This document shows, piece by piece, positions 18,168 through 57,424 of a stretch of DNA of 64,000 nucleotides. This stretch comes from Bacillus pumilus (lineage in GTDB: Bacteria > Bacillota > Bacilli > Bacillales > Bacillaceae). Every line of letters starts with the position of its first letter. Position 1 is the stretch's first letter. Under the pieces are notes generated by a model that made no database searches, was not told the DNA's origin, and saw only the letters and a list, made by a program, of their open reading frames with translations. The DNA is taken from the NCBI RefSeq assembly GCF_024498355.1, contig NZ_CP101833.1, positions 1,903,001-1,967,000 of the forward strand. The letters run 5' to 3'. Position numbers and translations under genes: made by a program.

Positions 18168-18196
18168 AAAAGCAGTGCCCTAATGAGGACTGCTTT
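18168..18196. terminator. Terminator hairpin, left copy flanking element A
   Basis: AGCAGT/ACTGCT stem directly after yodF. It matches 18371-18399 in 27 of 29 positions, so the element is bracketed by a duplicated terminator. Confidence 0.85.
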
Positions 18197-18370
18197 CAGC
18201 GTGTAGACAAACCCTCGCATTCTTTGTAAGGTCTGCGCTCCGGTGCTCACGAATGTCAAATTCGCTCCGCTCCAGTGCTCGTCCTTCCTAGACTTCAAAG
18301 GTTTTCTATCACGCTGAAAAGAAGACAAAAGGCTAAAATAAACATCATTTTAGCCCTTTGTCAACAATCT
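18197..18370 (-). repeat. Dispersed terminator-associated element, copy A (full, 174 bp)
   Basis: Oriented on the minus strand (after ctpA). In that direction it reads AGATTGTT, a 16-bp hairpin around GACAAAGGGCTAAAAT, TTCTTTT, then a module closed by CAGCGTG and CACGCTG. The internal helix pairs CTGG (read from 18272-18275) with CCGG (18240-18243), including one U-G pair. It lies between convergent yodF and ctpA. Confidence 0.9.
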
Positions 18371-18399
18371 AAAAGCAGTCCCCTGATGAGGACTGCTTT
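18371..18399. terminator. Terminator hairpin, right copy flanking element A
   Basis: Same hairpin as 18168-18196 with two substitutions; lies directly after the ctpA stop. Confidence 0.85.
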
Positions 18400-29639: not shown

Positions 29640-30602
29640 ATGAAGCTACTTTATATCAGCTCTGGCTACGGAGGGATCTATCAAACTTTCGATCAATGGA
29701 TAGTAGAAAGCTTCATCGATTCACCCTTTTCATGTTTAAAGATGGAAAGAGAATCTCTACTGACGCACATGCACAAAATCCGGACATTTTCTCCGGATTT
29801 TGTTTTCATGATGATCGGTGATCGTGTTCCAAAAGAAGTGCTTCAGCAATTCAAACAAGAACAGATACCAGTGGTCCTATGGATGACAGAAGACCCTTTT
29901 TATACAGATGTGTCAGCCAGCTGTGCACATGATGCACACATGATTTTGACAATTGACGAAGGCACACTGCCTTTTTATAAACAATTAGGTGTTCATCACG
30001 CACACTACTTTCCCATTCCGACAAATACACGTGTATTTCAGAAAAAAATGCCGCCAGCAGATTCGTTCCTCTATGATATTGCATTGATCGGTTATCCTTA
30101 TCCAAATCGCATCAAATCGATCCGTGCACTATTGCAACAGCACAAATGGCGTATTCTCGTTGCAGGGAAGGAATGGCACCGTCACTTAAATAAATCTCGC
30201 AGACTATATCGTGATCTGACACTCGTGACCAATTGGCTGAACCCTCAGCAAATGGCCAAAATGTATGAGCAGTCAGCCATTATCCTTAATCCACACAGGC
30301 CTGCTCAATTTGCTTATAACCGAAACAAAGCAATGATTGAAAATATAAGTTTGAACAACAGAGCATTTGATATCGCAGCAAGTGGAAGTTTTCAATTGAC
30401 GAATATAAATCCTCCAGGTGCTTTTTCAAGCTTTGCCTTTTACACTCATGAAGACGACTTGATTGAGAAAGTCGAATATTATGTATCAAATGATGAGAAA
30501 AGAAAGGCGATATCTCTTAAAAATTACGAACAAGTCGTTTCTTGGAATACATTTGACACGCTGCCATATAGGCTGTGTGAAATGGTAAAGAGCACCCTAT
30601 AA
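29640..30602 (+). CDS. cgeB: CgeB, spore-surface glycosyltransferase
   Basis: A 320-residue YkvP/CgeB-type glycosyltransferase (GT-B-like). The C-terminal half holds the sugar-nucleotide region (FDIAASGSFQLT, then HEDDLIEKVEYY). It is thought to add glycan to the spore crust, in the mother cell. The last codons and the TAA lie inside the terminator hairpin that is duplicated around element copy B. Confidence 0.9.
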   Translation: MKLLYISSGYGGIYQTFDQWIVESFIDSPFSCLKMERESLLTHMHKIRTFSPDFVFMMIGDRVPKEVLQQFKQEQIPVVLWMTEDPFYTDVSASCAHDAHMILTIDEGTLPFYKQLGVHHAHYFPIPTNTRVFQKKMPPADSFLYDIALIGYPYPNRIKSIRALLQQHKWRILVAGKEWHRHLNKSRRLYRDLTLVTNWLNPQQMAKMYEQSAIILNPHRPAQFAYNRNKAMIENISLNNRAFDIAASGSFQLTNINPPGAFSSFAFYTHEDDLIEKVEYYVSNDEKRKAISLKNYEQVVSWNTFDTLPYRLCEMVKSTL

Positions 30603-30613
30603 CCGGGCGCTTT
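30590..30613 (+). terminator. Terminator hairpin, left copy flanking element B
   Basis: GAGC-CCC...GGG-GCTT stem overlapping the cgeB stop codon. It matches 30787-30810 in 22 of 24 positions. Confidence 0.8.
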
Positions 30614-30786
30614 AAATTGTTGACAAAGGGCTAAAATGATCTTTATTTTAGCCCTTTGTCTTCTTTTCAGCGTGATCGGAAACCTTTGAAGTCTTGGGAA
30701 GACGAGTACCGGCGCGTAGCGAGTTTAAGATTCGTGAGCACCGGCACTTGGACTGACAAAGAATGCGAGGGTTTGTCTACACGCTG
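30614..30786 (+). repeat. Dispersed terminator-associated element, copy B (full, 173 bp)
   Basis: Plus orientation, after cgeB. It starts AATTGTTGACAAAGGG with the perfect hairpin GACAAAGGGCTAAAAT/ATTTTAGCCCTTTGTC, then TTCTTTT and the module from CAGCGTG (30668) to CACGCTG (30786). The internal helix has CCGG in both arms. It lies between convergent cgeB and the cytidylyltransferase-like gene. Confidence 0.9.
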
Positions 30787-30819
30787 GAGCGCCCTATAAC
30801 AGGGCGCTTTTCCTTTTTT
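30787..30819 (+). terminator. Terminator hairpin, right copy flanking element B
   Basis: GAGCGCCC/GGGCGCTT stem followed by a T-rich tract. It repeats even the cgeB stop codon context (CCCTATAAC). Confidence 0.85.
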
Positions 30820-35539: not shown

Positions 35540-35566
35540 AGAGCCTTTCCAGATGGAAAAGGCTCC
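35540..35566. terminator. Terminator hairpin, left copy flanking element C
   Basis: AGAGCCTTTCC/GGAAAAGGCTC stem just after the DUF4397 gene. It matches 35735-35761 in 25 of 27 positions. Confidence 0.85.
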
Positions 35567-35734
35567 GAGCGTGTAGACAAACCCGCATTCTGTGTCAGTC
35601 CTGTGTGCTGGTGCTCACGAATCTCAAATTCGCTCCAGTACTCGGCCTTCCTAGACTTCAAGGGTTTTCATACCACGCTGAAAAGAAGACAAAGGGCTAA
35701 AATAAGGTCATTTTAGCCCTTTGTCAACAATCTG
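35567..35734 (-). repeat. Dispersed terminator-associated element, copy C (full, 168 bp)
   Basis: Minus orientation (after ypmT). Same organisation as copies A and B. The internal helix reads CTGG (from 35635-35638) paired with CCAG (from 35608-35611), a compensatory change relative to CCGG/CCGG in copies B and E. It lies between two convergent genes. Confidence 0.9.
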
Positions 35735-35761
35735 AGAGCCTTTCCAAATGGAATAGGCTCC
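35735..35761. terminator. Terminator hairpin, right copy flanking element C
   Basis: Copy of 35540-35566 with two substitutions, directly next to the ypmT stop. Confidence 0.8.
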
Positions 35762-35959: not shown

Positions 35960-35979
35960 GATTTCACTCCTGACTTGCA

Positions 35980-36213
35980 CGTTCTATTGTTTTGGATGGT
36001 AATATGAGAATTCGATTTCATCGTTCTCAAGATCAATTTTGTTCGCTTTGACATACATATCATTCGTCAGTGGCATTTCTGAAAGGCGCACTTCAACGTT
36101 CTATTGTTTTGGATGGTAATATGAGAATTCGATTTCATCGTTCTCAAGATCAATTTTGTTCGCTTTGACATACATATCATTCGTCAGTGGCATTTCTGAA
36201 AGGCGCACTTCAA
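35980..36213 (-). repeat. Perfect 117-bp tandem duplication of the ypmS 3' end
   Basis: Positions 35980-36096 and 36097-36213 are identical. The upstream copy (36097-36213) is the real 3' end and stop of ypmS. The downstream copy is untranslated remnant sequence between ypmS and ypmT. Confidence 0.95.
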
Positions 36214-45888: not shown

Positions 45889-45963
45889 ATGCTTGAAGGA
45901 TTTTTCGTCACGGCTTCCTTGCTGACATTATTTTATTTTGTCTATATGGAGATCACAGATTAA
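45889..45963 (+). CDS. Micro-protein, 24 aa, membrane helix
   Basis: MLEGFFVTASLLTLFYFVYM plus EITD. It is a single amphipathic/hydrophobic helix. A strong SD (GGGAGG) lies 7 bases from the ATG, a promoter-like pair is upstream, and a terminator follows directly, so it looks like a complete gene. No family is recognised. Confidence 0.65.
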   Translation: MLEGFFVTASLLTLFYFVYMEITD

Positions 45964-45984
45964 AAGCCCCTAATGAGGGCTTTT
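45962..45984 (+). terminator. Terminator of the 24-codon gene (flank of element D)
   Basis: AAAAGCCC/GGGCTTTT stem overlapping the stop codon, followed at once by element D. Confidence 0.8.
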
Positions 45985-45985
45985 C

Positions 45986-46039
45986 AGATTGTTGACAAAG
46001 GGCTAAAATGATCTTTATTTTAGCCCTTTGTCTTCTTTT
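45986..46039 (+). repeat. Dispersed terminator-associated element, copy D (5' part only)
   Basis: Only AGATTGTT, the perfect 16-bp hairpin and TTCTTTT are left; the downstream module and right terminator are missing. The minus strand of this piece encodes the last residues and stop of ypiP. Confidence 0.88.
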
Positions 46040-55841: not shown

Positions 55842-55868
55842 AAAGGTGCCCGTCATATACGGACACCT
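55841..55868 (+). terminator. Terminator of ugtP, left flank of element E
   Basis: GGTG-CCGT/ACGG-CACC stem right after ugtP; no T run follows because element E begins there. The remainder of a second copy (GACACCTTTTTT) is at 56012-56023. Confidence 0.75.
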
Positions 55869-55869
55869 C

Positions 55870-56013
55870 AGATTGTTGACAAAGGGCTAAAATGATCTTG
55901 ATTTTAGCCCTTTGTCTTCTTTTCAGCGTGATAGAAAACCTTTGTAGTCTAGGAAGGACGAGTACCGGAGCGGAGCGAATTTGAGATTCGTGAGCACCGG
56001 CACGCAGGACTGA
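55870..56013 (+). repeat. Dispersed terminator-associated element, copy E (3' truncated)
   Basis: Has the AGATTGTT start, hairpin, TTCTTTT and most of the module (CCGG in both arms), but stops at GGACTGACA. The remaining 30 or so bases, including CACGCTG, are missing and the sequence continues in the terminator remnant. The junction is at a shared GACA. Confidence 0.9.
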
Positions 56014-56026
56014 CACCTTTTTTCTT

Positions 56027-56728: not shown

Positions 56729-56864
56729 GCCGCGCACCTCTTTCTGTATTTTTTTTATATACGGACAAGATGCACGTTAGGTTTCGGAACATCAGATTCT
56801 TTTATATATAAGTGACAATTCACCAAAAAAATCAAACATTTTGCTCAAAATTTGGTTCGCCTCC

Positions 56865-56893
56865 TTGACGCTTTACTTTTGATGGTGTATAGT
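56865..56893 (+). promoter_or_regulatory. Promoter of cspD, with long leader
   Basis: TTGACG (56865-56870), 17 bases, TATAGT (56888-56893). The leader is about 90 bases and carries a hairpin AGTATGCC/GGTATGCT just before the SD, as is common for cold-shock mRNAs. Confidence 0.7.
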
Positions 56894-56989
56894 GGAACCA
56901 TCATTTAACAACTTCTAAGGCGTTAGATGATGAAAAATTTTTTTTAGTATGCCAAAAGGTATGCTACAGTACTAGGAGGAAAAAGCAAT

Positions 56990-57190
56990 ATGCAAAACGG
57001 TAAAGTAAAATGGTTCAATAATGAAAAAGGTTTCGGCTTCATTGAAGTTGAAGGTGGAGACGATGTATTCGTTCACTTCACAGCTATCGAAGGTGACGGT
57101 TACAAGTCTTTAGAAGAAGGACAAGAAGTTTCTTTTGAAATCGTTGAAGGTAATCGTGGACCTCAAGCTGCAAACGTAACAAAAATCTAA
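56990..57190 (+). CDS. cspD: Cold-shock protein CspD
   Basis: A 66-residue single cold-shock domain with RNP1 (KGFGFIEV) and RNP2 (VFVHF). It binds single-stranded RNA/DNA as a chaperone. Position between ugtP and degR identifies CspD. SD AGGAGG. Confidence 0.96.
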
Positions 57191-57221
57191 TCAACTAAAT
57201 GAATGATGAACCGACAAAATA

Positions 57222-57245
57222 AAGAGAGGCTTATGCCTCTCTTAT
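57222..57245. terminator. Bidirectional terminator between cspD and degR
   Basis: AAGAGAGGC/GCCTCTCTT stem, A-rich left and T-containing right side. Confidence 0.85.
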
Positions 57246-57424
57246 TTGATTTTCAGCTGAATTTCAATCGCTAAAATATTTTGCTTCAGTCTTTGTTCAA
57301 TTTCAGAGATATCTTTTTCGAGAAAAGGTCTTCCCTTCTTTGCTACATCTACTAGCTGCTCTAGATCGCTATACACCTCTTGAAATGTTCGATGTAATAC
57401 CGTTTCGAAATCCTTATTATTCAT
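57242..57424 (-). CDS. degR: DegR, stabiliser of phosphorylated DegU
   Basis: A 60-residue helical protein close to B. subtilis DegR (FQEVYSDLEQL; IEQRLKQNILAIEIQLKIK). DegR protects DegU-P from dephosphorylation and so raises exoenzyme production. Same length and place as in B. subtilis. Confidence 0.92.
   Translation of the reverse strand: MNNKDFETVLHRTFQEVYSDLEQLVDVAKKGRPFLEKDISEIEQRLKQNILAIEIQLKIK

What the first reader, a model, noticed from the sequence alone, without database searches (positions are those of the whole stretch)
18168..18399. Elements are inserted in terminators and flanked by a duplicated terminator hairpin
Copy A is flanked by two 29-base hairpins that differ at 2 positions; copy B by two 24-base hairpins (2 differences, including the cgeB stop context); copy C by two 27-base hairpins (2 differences). 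The hairpin sequence is different at each locus, so it belongs to the host site, not to the element. This is a target-site duplication of the length of a whole Rho-independent terminator, or a capture of one. The outcome is that both convergent genes keep a terminator. Terminator-targeted insertion with a 24-29 bp duplication is unusual. Group IIC introns prefer terminators, but nothing here looks like an intron.
Basis: partly seen in the sequence, partly recalled or inferred. Interest (0 to 1): 0.85.

Follow-up and report, generated by a model that had tools for sequence, protein, structure and literature searches.

The report
Terminator-duplicating miniature IS1182-type transposon
A small jumping DNA element in a Bacillus pumilus-group bacterium lands in the hairpins that end genes and copies the whole hairpin each time, as do some larger relatives that carry the enzyme, so the landing site is kept and a hairpin remains on both sides.

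Summary
The window's copies are about 175-nt non-autonomous elements (MITEs) with imperfect inverted ends. In the own genome I paired 63 copies; 50 of 63 have flanking direct repeats above the 99.9th percentile of 3906 mismatched pairings. The repeat is the host terminator hairpin, centred on its dyad (39 of 50 exactly, the rest within 1 nt). At the three window sites, orthologous genomes have single-hairpin empty sites: 12/17, 14/17, 15/17. So this is a whole-terminator target-site duplication, not capture. The MITE ends resemble most an IS1182-family IS of the same species group. Of 49 full-length IS of that transposase clade, 47 have repeats (14-42 nt), 41 of 47 strongly palindromic. Two other IS1182 clades differ: 8-9 nt repeats, or none (IS1272-like). 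IS1272 is known to replace hairpins, and its authors proposed whole-hairpin duplication as a hypothetical alternative (PMC5678879). Verdict: a new MITE family within a known transposon family, showing an insertion mode that was predicted and that my paper searches did not find documented. How the transposase does it is inferred.

The parts
18169..18196 (.). Copy A, left target-site duplication (terminator hairpin of the yodF-ctpA junction)
   Evidence: single hairpin in 12 of 17 orthologous sites
18197..18371 (+). Copy A, 175-nt MITE, left end CAGCGTGTAGACAAACCC, right end ...GTCAACAATCTA
18372..18399 (.). Copy A, right target-site duplication (hairpin), followed by the T-tract
30590..30612 (.). 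Copy B, terminator hairpin duplicate; the upstream ORF (reader: cgeB) ends inside it
   Evidence: empty in 14 of 17
30613..30786 (-). Copy B, MITE (174 nt)
30787..30809 (.). Copy B, second hairpin duplicate
35540..35566 (.).
   Evidence: empty in 15 of 17
35567..35734 (+).
35735..35761 (.).
45985..46039 (-). MITE fragment: right-end hairpin only; one host hairpin at 45962-45984
55869..56017 (-). MITE fragment lacking its left end; one host hairpin at 55844-55868

Best explanation
The elements are MITEs (non-autonomous derivatives) of an IS1182-family insertion sequence, most likely of the type called IS-b here (451-aa DDE transposase, ends CAGCTTGTAGACAAAG / CAGACCGTAGACAAACCCC). Shown: insertions duplicated the whole pre-existing palindromic terminator hairpin, symmetrically about its dyad, and full-length IS of the same transposase clade do the same. 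Inferred: the transposase recognises the hairpin or cruciform (or the dyad) and joins the element's 3' ends at the 5' foot of the hairpin on each strand, so that gap repair copies the entire hairpin. Result: a hairpin on both sides with the T-tract on the outside, the element probably becoming part of the 3' untranslated regions, and the target regenerated for further insertions.
For: Single-hairpin empty sites at the three sites tested (12/17, 14/17, 15/17; named strains). 50 of 63 copies with direct repeats beyond control; centre on the dyad in 39 of 50, within 1 nt in the other 11. In 46 duplications the end is exactly flush with the folded stem in 31 (5') and 30 (3'), and T follows outside at the first two positions in 36/46 and 43/46. 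IS-a and IS-b score 472.7-480.5 bits on NF033551 IS1182 (cut-off 270), with PF13751 and PF05598 (one of each tested). Clade-1 IS: 47 of 49 have direct repeats of 14-42 nt; 41 of 47 are at least 60% self-complementary against 0.64% of 2350 random windows (17 of the 49 loci are from the window's own genus). MITE left end matches IS-b left end 14/15 and IS-a at best 12/15. A G022 element joins a MITE left end to an IS-b-like right end. Target reuse: hairpin-MITE-hairpin-IS-a-hairpin in G018.
Against: 13 of 63 paired copies show no repeat above the threshold. Two of 49 clade-1 IS, and 2 of 7 plasmid records (ISEfa7 record, Exiguobacterium), show none; 6 of 47 clade-1 repeats are under 60% self-complementary. 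The own genome holds four full-length IS-a but only an IS-b-like remnant was seen, and the MITE right end matches IS-a and IS-b equally (13/15 each), so the mobiliser is not settled. In the G022 hybrid the right hairpin copy is much diverged. r=0.94 between repeat length and paired bases in clade 1 is partly circular; among the MITE duplications r is 0.70 with stem pairs and 0.35 with loop length. No experiment.
Confidence: 0.9

Rival explanations
1. The MITE is moved by the IS-a type transposase (450 aa, ends with GAGAAA), not by IS-b.
For: IS-a is full-length in the own genome in 4 copies and inserts into the same kind of target; MITE right end matches IS-a right end 13/15, as well as IS-b.
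Against: Both MITE ends carry GACAAA as in IS-b, not GAGAAA; left end 14/15 to IS-b against at best 12/15 to IS-a; the hybrid in G022 has an IS-b-like right end.
Confidence: 0.2
2. The transposase follows terminating RNA polymerase or another terminator-specific process rather than DNA hairpin shape.
For: T directly outside the repeats; clade-3 elements also sit between A- and T-rich flanks (0.65 and 0.75 against 0.33 and 0.35 further out).
Against: Repeats are symmetric about the dyad and reach 41-42 nt palindromes with little T outside (L254, L263).
Confidence: 0.25
3. A long staggered cut of roughly fixed size (about 24 bp) with a mere preference for palindromes.
For: MITE duplications cluster at 20-30 nt, mean 24.7, SD 2.3.
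Against: Clade-1 repeats span 14-42 nt; an IS in G113 gives 18, 22 and 34 nt on the same hairpin core at three places, extending along its A:T base (L342-L344).
Confidence: 0.08
4. The element carries or captures the terminator and delivers it.
For: None beyond the two-hairpin anatomy.
Against: The hairpin differs from locus to locus and is present singly in element-free relatives at the three sites tested.
Confidence: 0.01

Closest known systems
IS1272 / TnSha1 (IS1182 family; Furi et al. 2016 PMC4923244; Wan et al. 2017 PMC5678879)
   Same: IS1182 family; targets hairpins, several of them confirmed terminators, without sequence consensus; a cruciform-based model was proposed.
   Different: IS1272 deletes or replaces the hairpin and makes no target duplication; transposase 548 aa. 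Here the whole hairpin is duplicated, and the related transposases have about 450 aa and other ends. Wan et al. described this outcome as hypothetical pathway b (discussion part 1 read).
IS1182-family members said to target palindromes (Siguier et al. 2015)
   Same: Same family, palindromic targets.
   Different: Seen only as cited in PMC4923244 and PMC5678879, the latter saying no detailed data were given; I could not read the review or ISfinder entries.
ISBspe1 (Alkalihalophilus pseudofirmus OF4, annotated in NC_013792)
   Same: Named relative, 65.7% protein identity to IS-a, perfect 20-nt palindromic repeat.
   Different: Full-length IS, not a MITE.
Group IIC introns
   Different: No intron RNA match in the window at Rfam gathering threshold; inverted ends and a long target duplication instead.
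REP/BIME and other bacterial MITEs
   Same: Small, many copies (general features recalled).
   Different: Ends tied to an IS1182 IS and a target duplication as long as the target hairpin.

Membership tests
MITE (non-autonomous transposon) | Short, too small for a transposase gene, many copies | tested here: met
   38 of 63 paired copies have the same 173-nt core (175 with end bases); 74 right ends and 69 left ends in the stretches examined
MITE (non-autonomous transposon) | Terminal inverted repeats shared with a full-length IS | tested here: met
   MITE consensus ends against IS-b left end: 14/15 and 13/15; similar, not identical
MITE (non-autonomous transposon) | Target-site duplication and empty sites | tested here: met
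   50 of 63 copies; empty sites at three sites
MITE (non-autonomous transposon) | Mobilised in trans by the cognate transposase | not testable with these tools
   needs a transposition assay
IS1182 family (IS-a and IS-b, not the MITE itself) | IS1182 transposase | tested here: met
   NF033551 472.7-480.5 bits, cut-off 270; PF13751, PF05598
IS1182 family (IS-a and IS-b, not the MITE itself) | Inverted ends bounding one transposase gene | tested here: met
   1.50-1.56 kb with matching ends
IS1272 mode (hairpin replaced, no duplication) | Hairpin lost on insertion, no direct repeat | tested here: not met
   both hairpins present at the three window copies and single in empty sites
Group IIC intron | Intron RNA and reverse transcriptase | tested here: not met
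   no Rfam intron match in the window at gathering threshold; a 175-nt element cannot encode a reverse transcriptase; introns elsewhere in the genome were not sought

The most novel reading that the evidence does not exclude
The IS1182 family holds at least three transposase clades that read the same kind of target, a DNA hairpin, but cut it at different places: at the hairpin's 5' feet (whole hairpin duplicated, target regenerated; this element), within its loop (8-9 bp duplicated), or at its 3' feet (hairpin lost, as IS1272). Clade 1 thereby turns terminators into self-renewing landing pads.
Probability: 0.5. Interest if true: 0.8.

Novelty: new variant of a known kind. Interest (0 to 1): 0.66.

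Why it matters
Most DDE transposases make target duplications of a fixed few bases because the stagger is built into the enzyme (recalled). Here the duplication length seems to be set by the target's own hairpin. The 63 paired insertions in one genome, three of them checked against orthologous empty sites, and the 49 clade-1 IS loci are a ready data set for structure-guided transposition and bear on a route that was only drawn as a possibility for IS1272. It also suggests how an element can reach more than 60 copies in gene-dense DNA: it enters at gene ends, leaves a hairpin on each side, and keeps the site usable.

Tried and rejected
Rfam for an intron or known RNA: only cspA. Capture of a terminator by the element: rejected by empty sites. 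Loop duplication by clade 2: only partly supported; 30 of 31 have 8-9 nt repeats, folded targets are better than shuffles in 18 of 30 (z below -1, median -1.7), but perfect flanking arms are no better than in mismatched controls (5 or more pairs in 0.17 against 0.12; medians 2 against 3). An earlier control for the same question (4 or more spanning pairs in 29 of 30 against 0.78 of 870) was poor, because many targets share one repeat and my same-genome filter was faulty, and is not used. Hairpin loss by clade 3: not shown here; 0 of 34 have repeats of 6 or more and flanks are A/T-rich, but the search for an empty site hit a dispersed repeat instead, and the one for clade 2 found only the source genome among 4. 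The tree program warned that long branches meet and that the root is only a midpoint. (30 IS, looser ends) was replaced; some ends are shifted by one base and rows without a recognisable end motif were labelled undetermined (13 of 65 labelled rows). One search used a MITE slice shifted by three bases, so its MITE end scores were replaced. Paper searches did not turn up this MITE family or a documented whole-hairpin duplication by an IS1182 member: (open-licence PMC only; of the listed papers I opened passages of seven: PMC5678879, PMC4923244, PMC10969869, PMC4438569, PMC12056078, PMC9208149, the first also in abstract and discussion part 1; six in all, the rest seen as listing). ISfinder and Siguier 2015 were not readable.

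Full report
Setting. The window is G000:C1:1903001-1967000 of a 3.74-Mb genome. The nearest at copy A's flank is G042 (95%).

The element. Three near-complete copies and two fragments lie in the window. In the own genome a right-end pattern with up to 3 mismatches gives 85 hits against 4 for the reversed control. In the stretches fetched I found 74 right ends and 69 left ends, 63 paired; 38 of 63 have the same 173-nt core. A left-end pattern without mismatches occurs in 18 of 44 genus genomes (one of them with a single hit), 61 times in G000, with no hit for the control pattern. The consensus ends are CAGCGTGTAGACAAACCCTC and CAGATTGTTGACAAAGGGCT (49 copies of 170-180 nt).

The duplication. 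For each pair I scored the best direct repeat abutting the ends. 50 of 63 exceed the 99.9th percentile of 3906 mismatched pairings; their lengths are 20-30 nt with one of 13; the repeat's centre is the hairpin's dyad in 39 of 50 and within 1 nt in the other 11. In 46 with at least 18 nt and at most 3 differences, stems average 9.4 pairs, the 5' and 3' ends are flush with the folded stem in 31 and 30 of 46, and T follows on the outer side (36/46 and 43/46 at the first two positions). Of the 13 failures some show two hairpins differing by an indel, others unrelated flanks.

Empty sites. At yodF-ctpA 17 of 44 genomes match the flank: 12 have one hairpin and no element; G000, G020 (contig ends inside the element), G041 (left end lost), G001 and G022 are occupied. 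Named genomes of the B. subtilis and B. licheniformis groups show one hairpin after yodF (read by eye in 110 nt). The duplication reaches different positions in the A/T tract in G000, G001, G020 and G022 at the same site, which suggests separate insertions, though later mutation is possible. Only these three sites were tested for empty relatives.

The parent. PF13751 is found in 34 of 44 genus genomes. Two types occur in the pumilus group. IS-a (450 aa, about 1.55 kb, four full-length copies in G000) and IS-b (451 aa, about 1.50 kb, G021 and G022) are about 45% identical and far above the IS1182 cut-off. Both have duplicated palindromic hairpins; one IS-a copy (L060) has only a 14-nt half-hairpin repeat, and the two nested copies in L067 have none. 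The MITE's ends carry GACAAA like IS-b; the left end matches IS-b 14/15 against at best 12/15 for IS-a, the right end 13/15 for both. In G022 the yodF-ctpA site holds a hybrid of about 1.4 kb with a MITE left end, a 310-aa ORF and an IS-b-like right end, its right hairpin diverged. G043 has a MITE end fused to an IS-b gene (L074). I take IS-b as the likely parent, with IS-a as a rival.

A family-wide pattern. I examined loci from this call and further stretches, not all matches. A tree of 64 transposases gives three supported groups (99/96, 100/99, 100/100, midpoint root, with a warning about long branches); the three kinds of end motif each fall inside one group, and undetermined rows lie among them. 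With one call per locus and duplicates dropped: clade 1 (ends CAGnnYGTnGAnAAA), n=49, median repeat 22 nt, 47 with a repeat of 14-42 nt, 41 of 47 at least 60% self-complementary against 0.64% of 2350 random windows; clade 2 (GAGGCCACTGAAAAA and like), n=31, 30 with 8-9 nt; clade 3 (GAGGCTGGGACA, GGGGCTGTCCCA and like; tree rows mostly 515-630 aa), n=34, none of 6 nt or more, with A/T-rich flanks. These sets were gathered by the end motif, so they hold only IS whose two ends were recognised. Ends were also seen by comparing copies within one genome. For clade 1 the palindrome is clear; for clade 2 a hairpin around the repeat is only partly supported. One IS of G113 has repeats of 18, 22 and 34 nt on the same hairpin core, which fits cutting at the base of a hairpin whose A:T foot can be longer or shorter. 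Five of 7 named plasmid records of clade 1 have perfect palindromic repeats of 19-30 nt, two have none. Small elements with clade-1 ends in another genus also have hairpin repeats, with 1-4 differences (4 of the 16 locus numbers looked at).

Mechanism. In a DDE reaction the element's 3' ends join the target strands and the gap between the two joints is copied (stated in PMC5678879). For the repeat to equal the hairpin, the joints must lie at the 5' foot of the hairpin on each strand. Wan et al. 2017 (PMC5678879; abstract, passages and discussion part 1 read) described exactly this as pathway b, a loop-only duplication as pathway c, and hairpin loss as pathway a for IS1272. Furi et al. 2016 (PMC4923244; passages) reported hairpin targets and partial hairpin deletion for TnSha1/IS1272. 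PMC12056078 (passages) notes that IS1182 transposases act with or without duplication or deletion. What is added here is natural evidence for pathway b, in an IS clade and a high-copy MITE, and its link to a transposase clade. That clade 3 includes IS1272 is inferred from transposase length, a GAGGCTGAGAC stretch in a published IS1272 primer, and lack of repeats; the plasmid search named ISSau3 as a relative at 51.4%. Cruciform recognition is inferred.

Consequences. The T-tract lies outside: mean T in the 8 nt beyond the right hairpin 5.2 against 2.0 just after the left hairpin; A 4.5 against 3.2 on the other side (49 copies). Outer tracts of at least 5 of 8 are present on both sides in 19 of 49 and on at least one in 44 of 49. 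So a complete terminator is expected mainly beyond the element, and not every copy serves both directions. Gene orientation was not checked genome-wide. Because the hairpin is doubled, the target remains: G018 has hairpin-MITE-hairpin-IS-a-hairpin at a locus whose flank matches the window's 45985 fragment, and hairpin-MITE-hairpin-MITE-hairpin elsewhere; the latter may be a recombination product.

Limits. Genomes from the genome search are unnamed; about 7% of the own contig was read at base level, so unpaired left ends elsewhere were not sampled. Only an IS-b-like remnant was seen in the own genome. Literature was limited to open-licence papers.

Noticed in passing
window 35973-36206: A 117-base stretch repeated in tandem, 98% identical, partly in a reverse-strand ORF.
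   Followed up: no
window 56831-57249: cspA thermoregulator RNA, 84.5 bits, the only Rfam gathering hit in the window.
   Followed up: no
L139 937-2330 (G022): About 1.4-kb hybrid at yodF-ctpA with a MITE left end, a 310-aa ORF that by eye resembles a SAM-dependent methyltransferase, and an IS-b-like right end: such ends may carry passenger genes.
   Followed up: partly
window 30600-30602: The upstream ORF's stop codon lies inside the terminator hairpin at copy B, by eye in relatives too, so the duplication leaves the gene intact.
   Followed up: partly
L067 (G021): An IS-a copy abuts the terminal hairpin of an IS-b copy: IS ends are themselves hairpins followed by T runs and perhaps targets.
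   Followed up: no
L374, L375, L376, L383: Other small elements (228-637 bp) with clade-1 ends and duplicated hairpins in a different genus.
   Followed up: partly
one search hits; L384 around 1570-1620: A high-copy palindromic repeat (GTGAGCCTCCTCGGCG...GGGGTCTCAC type) in genus g67; similar sequence is a target of clade-2 IS in G213 and G221.
   Followed up: no
L064 1424 onward (own genome, C1 about 1970023): Remnant with an IS-b-like end and a degraded transposase about 3 kb beyond the window.
   Followed up: no
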